From: JAHJDO01 sp030671985 [NCBI: bacterium]
GTDB taxonomy: Bacteria; JAHJDO01
Length of the DNA stretch: 10,583 bases
Direction of reading: 5' to 3'
Assembly (NCBI GenBank): GCA_030671985.1
Contig: DAOVHI010000040.1
Span: 1 to 10,583, forward strand
The translations under genes and the position numbers were made by a program. Numbering within the stretch: position 1 is the stretch's first letter; every line of letters begins with the position of its first letter. Of the stretch, positions 1-7,861 are shown piece after piece. Below the pieces are notes generated by a model. It ran no database searches. It worked only from the letters and a program-made list of their open reading frames with translations, and was not told where the DNA came from.

Positions 1-213
1 TATTGTATGTCTGGTTATTTTAGAATAATTAAACGTTGCTGCGATAACTAGCCCAACGAATCCCAGCAAAAAGTATAAAAGCTGTTTTTTTGCATAGTTA
101 ATCTCAAGTGTGCTTGTGGCACTCTCGATAAATATTATACCAAGCAGACATAATATAATCGTTGTGAAAAATAAAATGAAATCGAAATTTTCCAGCAATC
201 TTCTATCAATCAC
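1..213 (-). CDS. rodA: RodA (SEDS-family cell-wall glycan polymerase), N-terminal part only
   Basis: RodA is the membrane-embedded SEDS glycosyltransferase that polymerises lipid II into glycan strands in the rod-elongation complex, working with a class B penicillin-binding protein. The window holds only its first 71 codons; the frame stays open to position 1. The start is a GTG at 211-213, which overlaps the last 8 bases of rsmE and has AAAGG (222-226) eight bases upstream. The peptide opens with VIDRRLLENFDFIL, the typical RodA beginning (MIDRRLL-NFDW in relatives), followed by a first hydrophobic helix (about residues 12-30) ending in FIESATS, where relatives have the IYSAT-like sequence. 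A basic loop (YAKKQLLYF) leads into a second helix (about 46-61). The overlap with rsmE suggests translational coupling. FtsW is the main alternative, but the N-terminus fits RodA better. The catalytic loop lies outside the window. Confidence 0.85.
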   Translation of the reverse strand, partial: MIDRRLLENFDFILFFTTIILCLLGIIFIESATSTLEINYAKKQLLYFLLGFVGLVIAATFNYSKITRHTI

Positions 214-961
214 AACCTATGCCTTTTACCAATTCATAATTCAGCACACTCATTAAGTATATTGCCGCAGTTTCGCTTCGCAGTATGCGGGCTCCAAGAG
301 AAACAGATATCCCTCCCAAATCCCTTATTGCTTTCACTTCCTCGTAATCAAACCCGCCTTCCGGACCTATAAAAACTGCAATTGGATCATTAGTGCTCTT
401 TTTGCGAAATATAGATTTAATATTGATTTTATTTTCCTCTTCCCATGGCACTATACAAAAACAGCCCTCAGGTAAAGCCCTTAAACTGTCGCCTATCGAC
501 ATCAAATCAAAAACCTTTGGAACAACTATTCTTCCGGATTGTTCTGATGCTCCTTCGGCTATCTTCTGCCACCTCTCAACCTGTTTCTTTGAGCGATCTT
601 CTTTAGGTATAGCAACACTTCTCCTTGTAATAATCGGATGAATTTCAAAGACTCCAAGTTCCGTCGCTTTTTGAATAACAAGATCAGTGTTTTTGTTCTT
701 CAATACACTCTGATATAGACAAATTTTAGCCGGTAATTCCTTGTTCTCTTCTTTTAACAGAACAATAATTCTTAGCTTCAGACATTTGTCCCCAACATCC
801 TCAATTAATGCTTCCCATACGTTGTTGATTTTATCAACTATAAGAATGGAGTCTCCCGTTTTAAGCCTTAACACATCTATTAGATAGTGAAACCTATTCT
901 GCGCTAAATTTATGAGTTCACCCTGCCTGATCGTATCAACGTCAAGAAAGATTCTTTTCAT
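206..961 (-). CDS. rsmE: RsmE, 16S rRNA (uracil-1498-N3)-methyltransferase
   Basis: RsmE methylates N3 of U1498 in 16S rRNA within the assembled 30S subunit, using S-adenosylmethionine. The 251-aa length is normal for the family. Residues 1-70 form the PUA-like RNA-binding part (RFHYLIDVLRLKTGD, 23-37). The rest is the SPOUT methyltransferase with its trefoil-knot motifs: QKATELGV (97-104), RWQKIAEGASEQSGR (130-144), FIGPEGGF (197-204) and SLGARILRSETAA (221-233), all intact. The start at 961 matches the usual N-terminus (MKRIF-D). No Shine-Dalgarno site is visible, and an extended -10 box lies only 10 bases upstream of the ATG, so the mRNA may be nearly leaderless. It overlaps rodA by 8 bases and probably forms one transcript with it. 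The upstream side appears rebuilt by an inserted block (see the 23-bp repeats). Confidence 0.96.
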   Translation of the reverse strand: MKRIFLDVDTIRQGELINLAQNRFHYLIDVLRLKTGDSILIVDKINNVWEALIEDVGDKCLKLRIIVLLKEENKELPAKICLYQSVLKNKNTDLVIQKATELGVFEIHPIITRRSVAIPKEDRSKKQVERWQKIAEGASEQSGRIVVPKVFDLMSIGDSLRALPEGCFCIVPWEEENKINIKSIFRKKSTNDPIAVFIGPEGGFDYEEVKAIRDLGGISVSLGARILRSETAAIYLMSVLNYELVKGIGCD

Positions 962-968
962 ATTGTGT

Positions 969-991
969 TTTATTGTAGCACACTTTCTTTA
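969..991. repeat. 23-bp perfect direct repeat, left copy
   Basis: This 23-bp sequence is identical, in the same orientation, to 3274-3296. Together the copies bracket about 2.28 kb (992-3273) holding the HEPN fragment, the HEPN-like gene and the KilA-N gene. The repeat contains the minus-strand extended -10 box of rsmE. A perfect match of this length at this distance is not expected by chance, so it most likely records an insertion or duplication event at the rsmE promoter. No terminal inverted repeat is visible just inside the boundaries. Confidence 0.85.
972..980 (-). promoter_or_regulatory. Extended -10 promoter box of rsmE-rodA
   Basis: On the minus strand the sequence reads TGCTACAAT, an extended -10 element (TGn plus TACAAT, five of six matches to TATAAT), with TACAAT at 972-977. 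The ATG of rsmE follows 10 bases later, so transcription would start about 3-5 bases before the start codon. No -35 hexamer is recognisable at 16-18 bases spacing (18 bases gives GATGTT). The same box occurs in the second copy of the 23-bp repeat, where a better -35 is present. This is a prediction from sequence only. Confidence 0.5.
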
Positions 992-1134
992 CGAAAACAT
1001 CTCTCTCAGCTTTCGCATTTGACGAAACCGTCCCTTTTTGAAAAGATTAAATTGGCTGACGATTTGTTGGATTTTGTTGGTATGATAAATAATGTGAGCA
1101 TAGTAACAAGATATCCTGAAGATTTACTCAAGTC
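992..1134 (+). pseudogene. Fragment of a HEPN-domain protein (C-terminal half), broken
   Basis: The plus-strand frame gives RKHLSQLSHLTKPSLFEKIK and continues with ADDLLDFVGMINNVSIVTRYPEDLLK. This resembles the middle and end of small stand-alone HEPN proteins, which have a histidine-leucine helix (HDL-x2-L), an acidic helix and then the hallmark TRYP-(D/E)-DL. Such proteins are usually 120-140 aa and often pair with a nucleotidyltransferase (MntA/HepT-like toxin-antitoxin modules). Here the first half is absent: resemblance begins right after the 23-bp repeat. The end is replaced by REP-like sequence from 1135, although the frame stays open to a stop at 1244-1246. No partner nucleotidyltransferase is present. 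It is therefore read as a relic rather than a functional gene. The assignment rests on remembered family patterns, mainly the RYPEDL motif. Confidence 0.5.
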
Positions 1135-1183
1135 TGTCATTACGAGGAGTTCCGAAAGCTTTCGGGGGGATTTGGCAATCTCG
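1135..1183. repeat. REP-like palindromic element A
   Basis: The element opens with TGTCATTACGAGGAG and closes with GGCAATCTCG, the layout of a widespread dispersed repeat (TGTCATTGCGAGGAG...GGCAATCTC) seen in many bacterial genomes. It contains a perfect 14-bp palindrome at 1152-1165 (CCGAAAG/CTTTCGG). It replaces the expected C-terminus of the HEPN fragment and is followed directly by element B. Confidence 0.65.
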
Positions 1184-1186
1184 CTT

Positions 1187-1216
1187 GTCATTCTGCGGCT
1201 TGACCGCAGAATCCAG
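1187..1216. repeat. REP-like palindromic element B (9-bp stem)
   Basis: Positions 1190-1212 form a perfect 9-bp stem (ATTCTGCGG/CCGCAGAAT) with a 5-base loop (CTTGA). The flanks GTC and CCAG match the common dispersed palindrome GTCATTC...GAATCCAG found in many environmental bacterial genomes. It lies 3 bases after element A. There is no T-tract on either side, so it is not a classical intrinsic terminator, though the stem could stabilise the 3' end of the minus-strand transcript that ends at 1288. Positions 1217-1287 hold no recognisable feature. Confidence 0.65.
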
Positions 1217-1287
1217 ATGGTTAATGATTTGTGTGTGGTTTTTTGAGGAAAGGTTGCTGTGTCGTTTTATCTTAAGATTTGCCACTT

Positions 1288-2256
1288 TTACCTGTTGTTA
1301 ATTTTTTGTTTTAGTAAAGCAATAACTTTTAATGAACCTTCAATACCATTAAGGATTTGGCTCAATTCAACTTTGTCCTCGGCAATATTTCCATGAACTA
1401 AATCATTTCGTATTTTTCTTAATGAATTTGTAGCATTTATGTGAGGCTGTAGAGATTTAGATTCTGCTTTTGATAAAGTCAGAGGAGTAACAAGGTTCAA
1501 CATTGAATTGAATGTTAGTTCATCTCGTAAAGCTTTTATCTTGGAGTTACTGAAACCGAATGCTTTTAAAGCAGTCTTTAGGTACTGTCTCAATATTGTT
1601 TCAATTAAAATAGATGCTTCAATAACTGCTGTCTTCTTGTGTCTGTTGTTAATTTTCGTTCGTATTCTTAAAACCTCAATTATTTCATCCTGAGGAAATT
1701 GTTCTTCGTAAATTGCTTCCTGAAGTTTCTTCCATTTTTCTTTATCTATTAGCTGGGCTCTCTTAAAAAGCGGGTTTAGTTTTCTTCTGCCTTTTTGAAT
1801 TTTAGGTCTAAATTTTATAGGCTCTGAACCGTCCAAAGACCACGTGATTTTTTTGCCATTGAAACTGTCACTATTATAAAACTGCTCAAGAGTCATAGGT
1901 GACTCAAGAAATAAATTTTTAATATTTGCAGTATAAAGAAGTAAGGACTCAGTTTTTTGGATAACTTCTAGATAGTAATTGTATATTTTGTTGGCTAACT
2001 CAGTGGAGAGTTTGCCTGAAGTTGTTAAACCTTTTTCGATGTTAGCAGAAACGGGAGAAATATGTATTTCGAGGATTGCCTCCCATATTATGCCACGTTC
2101 ATCTTTGCTGTCTCCAATTGGAGACAGGTAAATGAATGCATTTGCTCCTGCGAGAGGGAAAATAAGTGGAGACGCGTAGTCATTTTTGTCCAAATTCCAA
2201 GTGCCGAACATGGGAATTTTAATTTTTTTCTTTATTATCAGTTTTTCTGTAGTCAT
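1288..2256 (-). CDS. Uncharacterised 322-aa protein with HEPN-like C-terminal domain
   Basis: The whole protein is not a family I can name. The C-terminal third (about 205-318) is helical, with a helix IEASILIETILRQYL (212-226) and, near the end, LRKIRNDLVHGN (279-290). R283-N284-x3-H288 fits the HEPN motif R-(polar)-x-H that forms the RNase active site in many toxins and abortive-infection proteins. The first 110 residues look beta-rich, then helical (SPLIFPLAGANAFIYLSP, 29-46), and a basic linker (KIQKGRRKL, 152-160) joins the two halves. No signal peptide or membrane helix is seen. The ATG at 2256 is preceded by only a weak GAG at short distance. It lies downstream of the KilA-N gene on the same strand but behind a likely terminator. 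An RNA-targeting or RNA-binding role is an inference. Non-toxic HEPN-like domains also carry this motif, so activity is not proven. Confidence 0.7.
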   Translation of the reverse strand: MTTEKLIIKKKIKIPMFGTWNLDKNDYASPLIFPLAGANAFIYLSPIGDSKDERGIIWEAILEIHISPVSANIEKGLTTSGKLSTELANKIYNYYLEVIQKTESLLLYTANIKNLFLESPMTLEQFYNSDSFNGKKITWSLDGSEPIKFRPKIQKGRRKLNPLFKRAQLIDKEKWKKLQEAIYEEQFPQDEIIEVLRIRTKINNRHKKTAVIEASILIETILRQYLKTALKAFGFSNSKIKALRDELTFNSMLNLVTPLTLSKAESKSLQPHINATNSLRKIRNDLVHGNIAEDKVELSQILNGIEGSLKVIALLKQKINNR

Positions 2257-2335
2257 TTTTTCTCAAGACCAACATTAATTATTGAACAGTCACTTCTACT
2301 CTAATATTACCTTACCTCAAATTGCTTAAAACCTC

Positions 2336-2371
2336 AATAAAAAGGAAAAAGGGCGGAGGCAAGCCCCGCCC
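2336..2371 (-). terminator. Probable intrinsic terminator of the KilA-N gene, built from a GC-rich palindrome
   Basis: Read on the minus strand, a GC-rich hairpin (2371-2351, GGGCGG paired with CCGCCC plus an inner GGC/GCC with one bulged base) is followed by TTTTTCCTTTTTATT (2350-2336). This is the form of a rho-independent terminator, 57 bases after the KilA-N stop codon. The hairpin with its flank CCCCTACAAT also resembles a common dispersed repeat (GGGCGGGGC...GCCCCGCCCCTACAA), so a REP-like element appears to serve as the terminator. Between it and position 2256 (2257-2335) only an upstream leader for the HEPN-like gene is expected; no clear promoter was found. Confidence 0.6.
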
Positions 2372-2428
2372 CTACAATATGAAAATCGGGGAATGACCTG
2401 AAAGAAAAATAACTTCTTCATTTCTCGA

Positions 2429-3247
2429 TTACTTTCCATTACCGCCCTTCAAACGCATTGATGTCGTTTCTTGAGTAAGTAATTTCATTTGATGAATTGC
2501 GATTTTGTTTAGCTTTATCAAACGTTTATTCTGCGGAAGTTCTTCATTGATAAAAAGTGCATTTAAGTTTTCAAGATTCGATAGACATACCAGTTGAGTG
2601 ACATTTGCATAATCGCGAATGTTGCCTTTCTTGTCGGTGTTTTTTTCTCGCCAATCTCTGGCAGTCATGCCGAAAAGAGCAATATTTAAAACATCAGCTT
2701 CCGAAGCATAAAGGAGATTAATTTGATTTTTGGTCAACTCATGGGGAATGAGATTTTCTTTAATGGCGTCTGTATGAATCCGATAATTAATTCTTGCCAA
2801 ATTGCGTTTAATGTCCCAGCCAAGTTGTTTTTGTTCCGCTTCTTTTAGTCTTTGAAATTCCTTGATGAGATATATTTTAAACTCAGCGCTAATCCACATT
2901 CCAAATTCAAAGGCGATATCCTTGTGGGCATATGTCCCTCCATATCTGCCGACTTTTGCTATAAGTCCTATTGCATTCGTTTTGGCCGTCCATTCTTTCA
3001 CGCTGATTTTATAATTGTTTAAGCCTGACTGATTTCTAATTATGGCATATTCGCCATAATTAAAATTGGGATTATATAGTCGCTCCCATATTCCAAGAAA
3101 CTCAACAGTGTTTCTATTTCGAAGCCAGTCTGAAATAAAAAAATCTCCATCTTTTGCTTTCAACATATCAGTAAGAGAAATATAGTCTTCATCATTCAAC
3201 GAAATTATGTTTATCTCTGTATTTTTAACACTTATTTTTCTTGTCAT
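2429..3247 (-). CDS. KilA-N domain DNA-binding protein
   Basis: KilA-N is a DNA-binding domain first described in phage P1 KilA and common in phages, large DNA viruses and bacterial accessory genes. This 272-aa protein matches the bacterial chromosomal type over its whole length: DYISLTDMLK (21-30), SDWLRNRNTVEFLGIWE (39-55), then RYGGTYAHKDIAFEFGMWIS (101-120) and AEFKIYLIKEFQRLK (121-135). A conserved C-terminal part follows (NYRIHTDAIKENLIP, 154-168; ALFGMTARDWR, 190-200; NKIAIHQMK, 247-255). The length is usual for this group. The function is unknown; the C-terminal half may contact a partner. Translation starts at 3247, behind a weak site (GTGGGTG). Its promoter lies in the right copy of the 23-bp repeat, back-to-back with the helicase promoter. 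Self-regulation at that site is plausible but not shown. Confidence 0.88.
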   Translation of the reverse strand: MTRKISVKNTEINIISLNDEDYISLTDMLKAKDGDFFISDWLRNRNTVEFLGIWERLYNPNFNYGEYAIIRNQSGLNNYKISVKEWTAKTNAIGLIAKVGRYGGTYAHKDIAFEFGMWISAEFKIYLIKEFQRLKEAEQKQLGWDIKRNLARINYRIHTDAIKENLIPHELTKNQINLLYASEADVLNIALFGMTARDWREKNTDKKGNIRDYANVTQLVCLSNLENLNALFINEELPQNKRLIKLNKIAIHQMKLLTQETTSMRLKGGNGK

Positions 3248-3273
3248 ATTTCACACCCACTTTGTTATTGATG

Positions 3274-3296
3274 TTTATTGTAGCACACTTTCTTTA
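3274..3296. repeat. 23-bp perfect direct repeat, right copy
   Basis: Identical in sequence and orientation to 969-991. This copy keeps a plausible -35 partner (minus strand GGGACA at 3301-3306), which the left copy lacks. That suggests it is the original promoter context of rsmE and that the left copy is the duplicated one. It is the right boundary of the accessory block. Confidence 0.85.
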
Positions 3297-3306
3297 TTGT
3301 TGTCCC
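3277..3306 (-). promoter_or_regulatory. Sigma70-type promoter of the KilA-N gene
   Basis: On the minus strand, GGGACA (3306-3301, four of six matches to TTGACA) is followed after 18 bases by TACAAT (3282-3277), with the extended -10 TG just before it. Transcription would start near 3270, giving a leader of about 23 bases before the ATG at 3247. It overlaps the region needed for the rightward helicase promoter, so the two may interfere. Confidence 0.55.
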
Positions 3307-3330: not shown

Positions 3331-6300
3331 ATGTACAGCAATTATTATAATCAGCTAAACAAGAACCAAAAAGCGGTTGTTGATAATATTAGAGAACATG
3401 TTGTCGTGCTTGCCGGACCGGGTACAGGAAAGACACAGGTGCTTTCTGTAAGAACAGCAAATATACTAAAAAACCACAACGTTTCGCCATCAAATATCCT
3501 TATCTTGAGTTTTACTAATGCTGCCGCAGGAACCATCAGGGAGAGGCTTGTTGAGATCATTGGTACAGACGGCTATTTTGTAGAAGTTGGGACATATCAC
3601 AGCCTCGCAAATTCAATCATCGCTGAATCAGAGGAAGTATCCGAGACCTTTGGAGAAAAAATAGAGCTGCAGGATACAGAGAGAATCAAACTCATAAGAC
3701 ACATTCTGGATACACTTGATAATATCCCTGAAATCAGACCATTTAGAGCTCCTTATCATTATGAAAAGGAGATTGTTAAAAACATAAATATCCTAAAGAG
3801 AGAGAGTATCATGCCTGACGATTTTTCCAAATTACTAATAAATATCTCAGCTGACGGAGAGACTATTCAGGAAAAACATATTCCAAGACTTCACCTGTTT
3901 GGCAAGGTTTATAAAATGTATGAAGAGATCAAGAATGCAAAAGAAAAACAGGTTCTTGATGAGAGGGGAAGATATGATTTTGACGATATGATAATCATGG
4001 CAACCTATGTTTTGAATCATGAAAAAAATCTTGGCAAAAAATACAGGGAGAAATTCAGCTATATCATGGTGGACGAATTTCAGGATACGAACAAAGCCCA
4101 AATTAAGCTTCTTTTAAGTCTTATTGATCAAAAGAAAACTAATTTATGTGTGGTTGGCGATGATGACCAGTCAATATACAGATTTCAGGGCGCATCTATT
4201 GAAAATTTCAGGACAATAAAAGACAGCTTTAAGAATCTTACGCAGCTAACTCTTACAGAAAACTATCGCTCAACTCCCGAAATACTCAATATATCAAAAA
4301 AGCTTATAGAAAAAATCCCTTTTAGTGAGAGAATATCTCAAAAATCTTTGGTCCCGCACAAGAACTTCGAACGTAAAACAATAAAATCGCTAAGATTTAG
4401 TTCCATCAGAGAAGAGACGTCTTTCATTGTAGATAAGATTAAAAAACTTGTTAAAGAAAAACCCGTGGATGATCCATACAGCGATATAGCAATACTTCTT
4501 AGAGCAAGAAAAGACATACTGCCTATTATTGATGCGTTCCTGCAAACAGGAATTCCATATGTAACAGACGGCAAAGAGGATATAAGTACTCATCCGCGTG
4601 TCAGACAGCTGCTTTCAGCTCTGAACCTTGCAATAAATTCACATAATCCGGAACGTGCAGACAAGTATATATTTGAACTGCTCTCTTCAGATTATTTCGA
4701 GATAGACATAAGCGATATGACTAATTTACTGAGTTATGTAAGTTTAAAAAAGCGCCGCAATACAGAGAAACGAACCATTACGCTTTTTAATGAAATAATA
4801 TTAGAGCTTCCATTGCCTATTACCCTTAAAAACCCTCTAAAACTGCATAGATTCTCACGGACAATTCAAAGACTTATCAAGGATTCCAGAGCACGTCCGG
4901 TTCATCAGCTAATACTCCAGTATATAAAGGATTCCGGAATGCTGGAGTTTATATTAGCGCGATATGAAAAAGACCAAATATTAAGAGTAAGAGATTTAAG
5001 AGCAGTCTCTTCTTTTATTGAGTATGTAAAGGAACAGACAACAGCTAATCCATTAATGACAATTACGGATCTAATGGAAGATATTAATTTACAGCAATCC
5101 TACGGCATAGGAATTCAAGGCATACTCGCAAGTTCTCATCAGAAAGGGGTCAGGGTCCTGACAGCTCACAGCGCGAAGGGGACTGAATTCCATACTGTCT
5201 TTATCCCTTTCTGTATTCATGATAAAAAATGGCCTAAAAAACTAATTACAGATCTAATCCCTATTCCGCAAACGATTCTTCGGTCACCTGAAAAGAAAGA
5301 TACAAAGAAACTACATGTATTTGATGAAATAAGACTATTCTACGTAGCGTGTACAAGAGCTAAAGCAAACTTGTTTTTCACTGCCGCTCCGATACAAAAA
5401 GACATTCCAAGCATGTTTCTTAAAAATATGAACATTGAGCCTCAACCATGCCTCATCCCCGAAGAACAGGTTCTTCGATTTTCGATAGATACAGTGAAGG
5501 AACGTCCTCCATTTTTGCAGACAGGTGAAATTCTCAAGGACTATGTAAAATTCATAACCCTAAATCCGACAAATGTTAATGATTATATAAGATGTAAGCG
5601 ATATTTTCTTTATAACAATCTATTAATGCTTCCAAGCGAACTTATGGAAGGCCAGGTATTTGGGATTTGTGTTCACAAGGCATTAAGTAAAGTCTATCAG
5701 GAATACAAAAAGAGACAAAGCCTCCCTGAATTTGATATTTTTGAGAATGTTTTTAAGACGTGTCTGAAAAATATATCTTCGGGGAAAAGAATAGAACAGG
5801 GCTGTCTTGGGAAGATTGGCGAGCTCAGAACTTGGTATCAAAAAAAGGCGGAAGGCCGCGCGTCTGTTTTGTTCGTAGAAAAAAGTCTTGGGATACTCAT
5901 AAATGAGAATATTCCATTTGCAGGCAGATTTGACAGAATAGATATAGTCGGAAACAATAGAAATGTGTGCGTTATTGATTACAAAACAGGAAATGCTTAC
6001 GTGCATATAAAAAGCATCACGGACAACAATGACCCTCTTAACAAAAACTGCGACTCATATCTTCATCAGCTGATAGCCTATAAATTAATACTGGAAAATC
6101 AACCCGATCCTTATAAAGTAACATCATGCAAACTTGAGTTTTTGGAACCCTCAAAAAAAACAATCAAAAAATACAATATAGAAGAAGGAGAATACAAAAC
6201 ACTTGAGCTTACAATAACCGATAAAATGGCAGAAGATATGAAAAAGCTCATTATTGACGTGTGGCAAAGAATACACAATCTTGAATTTGAGAAATTAGCA

Positions 6301-6360
6301 AAATACGATAAGAAAAAATGTGAGAATTGTAATTTTAGAAGTGTGTGCTGGGAAGTGTGA
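3331..6360 (+). CDS. UvrD/PcrA-like helicase fused to an Fe-S PD-(D/E)XK nuclease
   Basis: This is a single-chain superfamily 1A 3'-5' DNA helicase with a RecB/AddB-type nuclease, 1009 aa. Helicase motifs are complete: Q motif LNKNQKAVVDN (9-19), Walker A AGPGTGKT (28-35), motif Ia ILSFTNAAAG (58-67), VDEFQD (247-252), VGDDDQSIYRFQGA (275-288), LTENYRS (308-314), VRVLTAHSAKGTEF (607-620) and FYVACTRAKANLF (670-682). The nuclease follows: GICVH (778-782), GRFDRID (865-871), VIDYKTG (881-887; D883 and K885 catalytic) and QLIAY (913-917). Cysteines C755, C997, C1000 and C1006 match the four ligands of the 4Fe-4S cluster in AddB and related nucleases. A role in double-strand break end processing, repair or degradation of foreign DNA is inferred. 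No AddA, RecC or AdnA partner is in the window. The start fits the family although no ribosome site is seen. It converges with the operon to its right, with 9 bases between stop codons. Confidence 0.95.
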   Translation: MYSNYYNQLNKNQKAVVDNIREHVVVLAGPGTGKTQVLSVRTANILKNHNVSPSNILILSFTNAAAGTIRERLVEIIGTDGYFVEVGTYHSLANSIIAESEEVSETFGEKIELQDTERIKLIRHILDTLDNIPEIRPFRAPYHYEKEIVKNINILKRESIMPDDFSKLLINISADGETIQEKHIPRLHLFGKVYKMYEEIKNAKEKQVLDERGRYDFDDMIIMATYVLNHEKNLGKKYREKFSYIMVDEFQDTNKAQIKLLLSLIDQKKTNLCVVGDDDQSIYRFQGASIENFRTIKDSFKNLTQLTLTENYRSTPEILNISKKLIEKIPFSERISQKSLVPHKNFERKTIKSLRFSSIREETSFIVDKIKKLVKEKPVDDPYSDIAILLRARKDILPIIDAFLQTGIPYVTDGKEDISTHPRVRQLLSALNLAINSHNPERADKYIFELLSSDYFEIDISDMTNLLSYVSLKKRRNTEKRTITLFNEIILELPLPITLKNPLKLHRFSRTIQRLIKDSRARPVHQLILQYIKDSGMLEFILARYEKDQILRVRDLRAVSSFIEYVKEQTTANPLMTITDLMEDINLQQSYGIGIQGILASSHQKGVRVLTAHSAKGTEFHTVFIPFCIHDKKWPKKLITDLIPIPQTILRSPEKKDTKKLHVFDEIRLFYVACTRAKANLFFTAAPIQKDIPSMFLKNMNIEPQPCLIPEEQVLRFSIDTVKERPPFLQTGEILKDYVKFITLNPTNVNDYIRCKRYFLYNNLLMLPSELMEGQVFGICVHKALSKVYQEYKKRQSLPEFDIFENVFKTCLKNISSGKRIEQGCLGKIGELRTWYQKKAEGRASVLFVEKSLGILINENIPFAGRFDRIDIVGNNRNVCVIDYKTGNAYVHIKSITDNNDPLNKNCDSYLHQLIAYKLILENQPDPYKVTSCKLEFLEPSKKTIKKYNIEEGEYKTLELTITDKMAEDMKKLIIDVWQRIHNLEFEKLAKYDKKKCENCNFRSVCWEV

Positions 6361-6369
6361 AATATTTTG

Positions 6370-6591
6370 TTACGACAATTCTTCTACGTCCGCTTTATCC
6401 CTGGTTCTTGAAGTTGAGACTCTAATAGTTCTTTGAAGTCTTGCTGGATATTCATACAAAAAATTTCCCACCTCAATTCTCAGCTTTTCAACAGCATTCA
6501 ACCTATATTCCGAGGTTTGTGACTGCCAGAATTTTCGGTCATCCATTGCCTGTTTTGCATGTGTTGTAGTTTTTATTATTTTCTTAATCAT
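6370..6591 (-). CDS. Small conserved-looking protein (73 aa), possible toxin-antitoxin component
   Basis: The frame also extends upstream to a TTG at 6615, overlapping ahcY, but the ATG at 6591 gives a natural start (MIKKIIKTTTHAKQAMDDRK), so that start was chosen. The core FWQSQTSEYRLNAVEKLR (21-38) followed by RLQRTIRV (51-58) resembles a family of small proteins with a pattern FW-x3-(T/S)-x2-(E)R-(L/I)-x-A-(V/L)-E-x-(L/M)R and a closing RLQR. From memory, these are often encoded just before a nucleotidyltransferase-like gene in suspected toxin-antitoxin pairs. No such partner follows here; the next thing downstream is the converging helicase gene. No membrane segment is present. It lies 13 bases after the ahcY stop and has no clear Shine-Dalgarno site, so it is probably translated from the ahcY transcript. 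Function unknown. Confidence 0.6.
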   Translation of the reverse strand: MIKKIIKTTTHAKQAMDDRKFWQSQTSEYRLNAVEKLRIEVGNFLYEYPARLQRTIRVSTSRTRDKADVEELS

Positions 6592-6604
6592 AACACTAAT
6601 TGAG

Positions 6605-7861
6605 TTATGTCCCAATCTCCCATGAACTGAGATATTTTTTTTGCTCCGTGGTTAAAGTGTCTATTTTAACACCCATGGAATTGAGCTTAAGTTTAGAGAT
6701 AGCTTTATCTATATCTTGAGGAACATTGTATACTTTATTATTTAATTTTTTGTAATTCTTCGCAATATACTCAGCTGATAAGGATTGATTGGCAAAACTC
6801 ATATCCATTACCATTGCAGGATGTCCATCAGCAGATGCCAGATTGATCAGCCGACCTTCCCCCAAAAGACATATTTTTCTGCCATTTTGCATTGTATATT
6901 CATCAACAAATTCCCTTACTCTTCTTTTGCTTCTACTCATTTTTTCAAGAGCAGGCACATCAATCTCTACGTCAAAATGTCCTGAATTTGCAATGATAGC
7001 ACCGTCCTTCATGTTCTTAAAATGCTTGGCTGCCAAAACATGTATATCTCCCGTTAAGGTTACAAAGGCATCGCCAATATAAGAAGCCTTCTCCATCGGC
7101 ATAACAGAAAATCCATCCATGACTGCCTCTAACGCACACAAAGGATCTACTTCCGTTATGATAACATTTGCTCCCATACCTTTGGCTCTGCTTGCAAAAC
7201 CACGTCCGCACCAGCCATATCCCGATACTACAACAGTGGAGCCCGCAAACAACATATTCGTTGCTCTGATAATTCCGTCAATTGTACTTTGCCCGGTACC
7301 ATATCTGTTGTCAAAGAAATGTTTTGTATCAGCGTCATTAACAGCTATGATCGGAAACGCAAGTTTCTTCTGTTTTTCAAGACTTCTCAGTCGAATAACA
7401 CCTGTTGTTGTCTCCTCTGTCCCGCCAAGAATATCCTTTATAAGATCTCTTTTCTTATCGTGAATTGTGGAAACAAGATCTGCGCCGTCATCCATAGTAA
7501 TATTCGGCTTTGCATCCAATACATTGTTTATGTGTCGATAATATGTTTTGTTGTCCTCTGCGCAAATGGCGAAAACAGATATCCCATAATCTTTTACGAG
7601 AGAAGCTGCAACATCATCCTGAGTGCTTAAAGGATTTGAAGCGCAAAGCATTACTTCCGCGCCGCCCGCTTTTAAAGCTATCGCCAAATTAGCTGTTTCT
7701 GTTGTAACATGCAGACATGCACCTAATTTAATCCCTTTCAGCGGTTTCTCTTTTTTAAAGCGCGCCTGAATTGATCTGAGAACAGGCATATTTCTTTCCG
7801 CCCATTCTATACGCAGTTTTCCTTCTTTAGCCAGCTTAATGTCTTTTATATCATACTTCAA
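6605..7861 (-). CDS. ahcY: Adenosylhomocysteinase (S-adenosylhomocysteine hydrolase)
   Basis: AhcY splits S-adenosylhomocysteine into adenosine and homocysteine with bound NAD, relieving product inhibition of methyltransferases and feeding homocysteine back to methionine. At 418 aa it is the short form lacking the roughly 40-residue insertion of many proteobacterial and eukaryotic enzymes. Motifs are intact: HVTTETANL (51-59), [10 protein letters not shown] (76-85), DDGADLV (124-130), TEETTTGV (148-155), [18 protein letters not shown] (175-192), the NAD-binding GYGWCGRG (214-221), GHFDVEID (294-301) and [15 protein letters not shown] (339-353). The C-terminus [16 protein letters not shown] is typical of the short form. 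The start codon is TTG at 7861, chosen because AAGGAG sits 7 bases upstream. It lies 39 bases after metK, as expected for two steps of the same cycle in one operon. Confidence 0.97.

What the first reader, a model, noticed from the sequence alone, without database searches (positions are those of the whole stretch)
969..3296. Identical 23-bp direct repeats bracket a 2.3-kb accessory block inserted at the rsmE promoter
Seen: positions 969-991 and 3274-3296 are identical and in the same orientation. Between them are only accessory sequences (HEPN fragment, HEPN-like gene, KilA-N gene). The right copy keeps a plausible -35 (GGGACA, 18-base spacing) for the shared leftward -10; the left copy, next to rsmE, has none. 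The HEPN fragment begins abruptly at 992, just after the left repeat. Removing one repeat and the insert would restore a compact divergent promoter between rsmE and the helicase-nuclease. Inference: cargo entered at this site, duplicating 23 bp, and the KilA-N gene took over the rsmE promoter. No transposase or integrase is inside, so the agent is unknown. It may be a non-autonomous element or a recombination product.
Basis: partly seen in the sequence, partly recalled or inferred. Interest (0 to 1): 0.7.

Follow-up and report, generated by a model that had tools for sequence, protein, structure and literature searches.

The report
Defence-gene insertion that duplicated a promoter
In an uncultured bacterium, a small block of probable virus-defence genes has landed in the promoter between two housekeeping genes and left an identical 23-letter copy of that promoter on each side, as a known but unexplained kind of integrase-free gene insertion does.

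Summary
The repeat is real. Positions 969-991 and 3274-3296 are identical, co-oriented, and the genome's only copies at up to 3 mismatches. The longest repeat in 200 shuffles was 16 bp. Congener G004 has one copy (20 of 23 bases) in an 82-bp divergent spacer before the same helicase, so insertion with target duplication is well supported. Two corrections: the neighbour in G004 is rodA, and RsmE was found in none of 4 congeners; the "HEPN fragment" has no Pfam support. The KilA-N unit (89% DNA identity) sits elsewhere in G004, and its homology ends at the right repeat, so the insert is 992-3273. The rodA/helicase gap is a hotspot, holding other cargo in G001, G002 and G003. Six further blocks in sampled DNA of the genus look bracketed by unrelated repeats of 39-89 bp. 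No integrase, terminal inverted repeats or shared att sequence turned up. Best reading: an illegitimate insertion resembling the "insertion with long target duplication" described for restriction-modification genes, with a shorter duplication and other cargo.

The parts
1..213 (-). start of a rodA/ftsW-like gene (GTG start at 213-211, overlapping the rsmE stop)
   Evidence: 78.8-83.9% DNA identity to the start (MIDRRL...) of the same gene in all 4 congeners; the name RodA is recalled resemblance, no family search was run
206..961 (-). rsmE, 16S rRNA (uracil-1498-N3)-methyltransferase
   Evidence: PF04452 E 3.5e-46, TIGR00046 over its cut-off; not found in G001-G004
969..991 (.). left copy of the 23-bp direct repeat (leftward -10 at 977-972, no -35)
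992..1138 (+). left end of the insert; 49-codon open reading, remnant of an unidentified gene
   Evidence: no Pfam or NCBIfam support; a 46-base stretch of G004:C86 is 79% identical (E 4.3e-4)
1133..1216 (.). dispersed repeat found at other places in the four congeners
   Evidence: also near the left border of the hotspot inserts of G002 and G003
1288..2256 (-). 322-aa accessory gene, possibly HEPN (RNDLVH motif near the C-terminus)
   Evidence: PF18735 E 0.002, below cut-off; PADLOC Csx1 E 0.0023; not found in the 4 congeners, and in 92 further genomes only one marginal hit, E 6.8e-4; none in plasmids or viral contigs
2271..2343 (.). about 73-bp dispersed element just upstream of the 322-aa gene
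   Evidence: copies in all 5 genomes of the genus
2349..2373 (-). GC-rich hairpin with T tail, candidate terminator of the KilA-N gene; also a dispersed element
2429..3247 (-). KilA-N domain gene, candidate defence gene (PADLOC PDC-S22)
   Evidence: PF04383 E 3.6e-23; PDC-S22 E 1.8e-128; 93% identical protein at another locus of G004
3274..3296 (.). right copy of the 23-bp direct repeat (leftward -10 at 3282-3277), taken as the native position
   Evidence: one copy in G004, 20/23 identical
3301..3306 (-). -35-like GGGACA, 18 bases from the -10 of the right copy
3331..6360 (+). UvrD-type helicase fused to PD-(D/E)XK nuclease, conserved right flank
   Evidence: PF00580, PF13361, PF12705; orthologues at 83-86% in 4 of 4 congeners

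Best explanation
A composite block (992-3273: gene remnant, 322-aa possibly HEPN gene, KilA-N candidate defence gene) was inserted into the native divergent promoter upstream of the helicase, duplicating 23 bp of target. The KilA-N gene, which brings only about 26 bp of its own leader, now starts under the native leftward promoter; the rsmE-rodA side keeps the -10 but has lost the -35. No enzyme of its own is visible. The event most likely was an illegitimate insertion with target duplication (for example repair at a staggered break, or copying that returned upstream of its departure point) at a hotspot where defence genes are repeatedly gained. Shown: the repeat, the single-copy site in G004, the module boundary, the hotspot. 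Inferred: the repair route and the promoter takeover.
For: Exact 23-bp pair, unique in the genome. Single copy at the orthologous site of G004. The KilA-N unit 2271-3277 is 88.7% identical to a unit at another locus of G004, and the homology ends where the right repeat begins. The same gap is filled in 4 of 5 species and empty in 1, with type III restriction-modification, PDC-S02, DUF4238 and DUF6036 genes in the other three. Six other blocks look bracketed by unrelated repeats of variable length: 32/39, 48/50, 51/57, 57/60, 64/71 and 76/89 identical; single-copy counterparts were seen for three of them, one clouded by a second duplication. Terminal inverted-repeat scores did not exceed the 95% background in the 4 inserts tested, the window's among them.
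Against: The duplication is short (23 bp) beside the order of 100 bp reported for the known phenomenon. Of 25 alignment gaps between G002 and G003, 8 had clean enough junctions to score: overlaps were 3-13 bp in 7 and 29 bp in 1, the latter an in-gene domain repeat, so long duplications are not the rule. The other three filled states of this hotspot show no flanking repeat. No close relative with rsmE and an empty site exists in the data.
Confidence: 0.62

Rival explanations
1. Site-specific integration: the 23-mer is an att core, and an integrase acting in trans inserted a non-autonomous element.
For: Perfect direct repeats around cargo with no integrase of its own.
Against: The 23-mer occurs nowhere else in the genome. 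Inserts of G001-G003 at the same gap show no flanking repeat. Other bracketed blocks use unrelated repeats of 39-89 bp. The target is a promoter, not a gene end.
Confidence: 0.12
2. Integration by recombination: a circular or tandem donor that already carried a copy of this promoter (from the same hotspot in another strain) crossed over with the resident copy, leaving one on each side.
For: The hotspot is shared across species with varying cargo. At efp in G003 the order efp-start copy, upstream segment, toxin-antitoxin, efp looks like a tandem duplication of an occupied site.
Against: Only 23 bp of identity, short for RecA-dependent exchange; no second copy of neighbouring sequence is present beyond the 23 bp.
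Confidence: 0.18
3. Chance or selection: two separate, similar promoters, not a duplication.
For: Both copies sit at the position of a leftward -10.
Against: 23 of 23 identical, against at most 16 bp in 200 shuffles; the left copy lacks a -35; the edge of the right copy coincides with the module boundary.
Confidence: 0.04

Closest known systems
Insertion with long target duplication (Nobusato et al. 2000; Furuta et al. 2010), restriction-modification genes of Helicobacter pylori and others
   Same: Accessory defence gene inserted without a transposase, bracketed by a direct duplication of the target; duplications long and variable, reviewed as in the order of 100 bp (passages seen in PMC3874152, and PMC1643837; both primary papers known only as citations).
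   Different: Duplication here only 23 bp; cargo is KilA-N plus an unassigned gene, not a restriction-modification system; the target is a divergent promoter.
Defence islands and core-genome defence hotspots (for example in E. coli and Pseudomonas aeruginosa; titles and abstract starts seen)
   Same: A fixed gap between core genes carries different defence genes in different genomes.
   Different: Only five genomes, one per species; no carrier element recognised.
PADLOC PDC-S22 (KilA-N domain) candidate defence family
   Same: The KilA-N gene matches over nearly its whole length, E 1.8e-128; relatives on phages, satellite phages and plasmids and viral contigs.
   Different: Function untested; the library gives no description, and PDC as 'phage defence candidate' is recalled.

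Membership tests
Insertion with long target duplication | target sequence present twice, directly flanking the insert | tested here: met
Insertion with long target duplication | single copy and no insert in a related genome | tested here: met
   G004, 20/23 identical, 82-bp spacer; caveat that rsmE is also absent there
[quoted passage not shown]
   23 bp here; 39-89 bp in six other bracketed blocks of the genus
Insertion with long target duplication | cargo frequently a restriction-modification system | tested here: not met
   KilA-N and a 322-aa gene; the text read calls it a frequent association, not a requirement
Site-specific integrative element | recombinase gene in the element | tested here: not met
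   no integrase or transposase among the insert ORFs given to Pfam (4 of the 6 of at least 60 aa)
Site-specific integrative element | same att sequence used by other copies | tested here: not met
   2 places in the own genome, both here
Classical DNA transposon | terminal inverted repeats | tested here: not met
   best end-to-end score 5, background median 6

The most novel reading that the evidence does not exclude
This genus has a general, integrase-free route by which small defence and toxin-antitoxin modules enter promoters and gene ends with direct target duplications of 23-89 bp: one mechanism behind the seven bracketed blocks (the window's included) seen in about 1.36 Mb of sampled sequence.
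Probability: 0.22. Interest if true: 0.7.

Novelty: new member of a known kind. Interest (0 to 1): 0.42.

Why it matters
How defence genes without any transposase keep moving between core-gene gaps is an open question. This locus gives both ends of one insertion, the single-copy site in a congener, and a second home of the same module, so the junctions can be read exactly. The other bracketed blocks in the genus offer a test of whether one process with variable target duplication explains them.

Tried and rejected
Ordinary promoter motif: rejected, only two copies. RNA element in the window: Rfam gave nothing at E up to 1. The 2271-2386 segment is two separate dispersed elements, one often lying upstream of gene starts (judged by eye) and one a hairpin; it was not tested with an integron attC model. 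Duplication on every insertion in the genus: rejected by the 8 junctions scored. Alien origin of rsmE by composition: not informative, GC 0.38; its codon likelihood (-1.112) is the lowest of the 8 genes but close to the core range of -1.04 to -1.08. The RodA-like protein was found beside rsmE in 0 of 29 distant rsmE loci, so rsmE gain or loss is undecided. Structure of the 322-aa protein: AlphaFold without an alignment gave mean pLDDT 39.6, unusable. Relatives of that protein in viral contigs: none. Bracketed blocks: 33 exact two-copy pairs and 26 of 55 imperfect pairs kept as locally unique. Gene context was looked at for 17 pairs besides the window (9, 7, 1); 6 were judged brackets by eye. 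The pairs not opened were left as probable gene duplications or dispersed elements, unchecked.

Full report
The two 23-bp copies are exact and co-oriented. In 200 dinucleotide-preserving shuffles the longest repeat was 16 bp, and the own genome shows no third copy at up to 3 mismatches.

Relatives. Helicase orthologues (83-86% identity) exist in 4 of 4 congeners held; the other 35 genomes of that call are related only at domain level and give weaker or no matches. Aligning these loci gives five states of one gap between the rodA-like gene and the helicase. In G004 the gap is 82 bp with a single copy of the 23-mer (20/23) at L075:2795-2817. In the window it is 3.1 kb with rsmE and the insert. 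In G001 it is 1.5 kb with a nucleotidyltransferase (DUF6036, E 4.3e-4, below the curated cut-off). In G002 it is 5.0 kb with type III res and mod genes. In G003 it is 4.1 kb with DUF1016/YhcG (PDC-S02) and DUF4238 genes. Self-comparison of the G001, G002 and G003 loci reported no flanking repeat.

rsmE. It is found in the own genome but not in G001-G004, by protein (31 of 40 genomes had a match) or by the Pfam family (10 of 14 control genomes had it). G001 is only 62% complete. Its stop codon overlaps the rodA-like start. Because the left repeat abuts rsmE, not rodA, rsmE must have been in place before, or arrived separately from, the insertion of 992-3273.

Insert boundaries. A KilA-N protein 93% identical to the window's lies at another locus of G004 (G004:C20); 6 of 97 genomes searched had any match. 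DNA homology covers window 2271-3277 at 88.7%, with weaker similarity to about 2255, and stops at the right repeat. The 322-aa gene is not part of that shared unit and has no match in the 4 congeners; among 92 further genomes there was one marginal hit, E 6.8e-4. KilA-N relatives occur in 42 of 50,697 phage records and 30 of 72,556 plasmid records, and in 5 viral-contig loci.

Consequence for transcription (inference). The leftward promoter GGGACA-18-TACAAT is complete only at the right copy, with 29 bases between the -10 and the KilA-N start codon. A hairpin with a T tail follows the KilA-N gene. The left copy offers only a -10. Nothing was measured.

Is it a general process? In 373 kb of G000, 393 kb of G002, 548 kb of G003 and 41 kb of G004, I listed locally unique direct repeats and looked at the gene context of 17 pairs besides the window. 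Six look bracketed by a copy of a neighbouring gene edge or promoter. G002 C120: PIN gene, 48/50. G002 C75: 278-aa ORF, 51/57. G002 C140: 348-aa ORF, 57/60. G003 C99: Phd/YefM and ParE-type pair at the efp start, 64/71. G004 C108: DUF4143 ATPase (PDC-S01) at the helicase 3' end, 32/39. G000 C122: two genes at the fmt 3' end, 76/89. The gene names efp and fmt are recalled from the sequence, not searched. The helicase end has one matching stretch at that gene in the window, G002 and G003. The PIN unit is 95% identical to a unit elsewhere in G004, and its repeat aligns once in G000 and, for its first 24 bases only, once in G004, where another insert follows. The efp start is single in the loci of the other four genomes, but the upstream segment is duplicated too, and G001 carries the same toxin-antitoxin unit without the left copy, so this case is mixed. 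At fmt the left copy is shared with G003, so that event is older. The C140 block as a whole is absent from G003 and no single-copy counterpart of its repeat was seen; C75 was not tested further. Against generality, 7 of the 8 junctions scored between G002 and G003, out of 25 gaps, show only 3-13 bp of overlap, and the eighth is an in-gene domain repeat.

Known counterpart. Insertion with long target duplication was described for restriction-modification genes in H. pylori. I saw passages on it in PMC1643837, PMC3874152 and PMC3031569; the primary papers were not read. In anatomy the window works like that, with a shorter duplication and other cargo. Full membership is left open because 23 bp is short. 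Six paper searches were run; none paired KilA-N with insertion or target duplication, so I make no claim that this combination is absent from print.

Verdict: a real insertion with target duplication, mechanism unproven, at a defence-gene hotspot.

Noticed in passing
window 6370-6615: The 81-aa ORF between helicase and ahcY looks like the remnant of a longer gene (probably a nucleotidyltransferase, by recalled resemblance): the homologous stretch in G003 holds 355 bp more in the middle.
   Followed up: partly
window 2271-2343: A 73-bp dispersed element occurs in all five genomes of the genus, often just upstream of a gene start; some copies read as a short peptide end (..EVLSNLRYGNIKVEVTVQ-stop), others have stops.
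   Followed up: partly
G001-G004 genomes: RsmE (PF04452) undetected in 4 of 4 congeners although present in 10 of 14 control genomes; a possible lineage loss of a widespread rRNA methyltransferase.
   Followed up: partly
window 3331-6360: The conserved helicase-nuclease itself matches PADLOC models of defence helicases (RTasHel E 2.5e-75, GajB E 2.4e-74), so the hotspot's anchor gene may be more than a housekeeping repair gene.
   Followed up: no
L194:16420-17303 (G003 C99): Phd/YefM-ParE-type toxin-antitoxin pair at the efp start with duplicated efp start and duplicated upstream segment, suggesting a tandem duplication of an occupied insertion site.
   Followed up: partly
L081: A contig labelled Candidatus Nanohaloarchaea (CSMAG_1430) encodes the end of this helicase at 88% identity, probably a binning error.
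   Followed up: no
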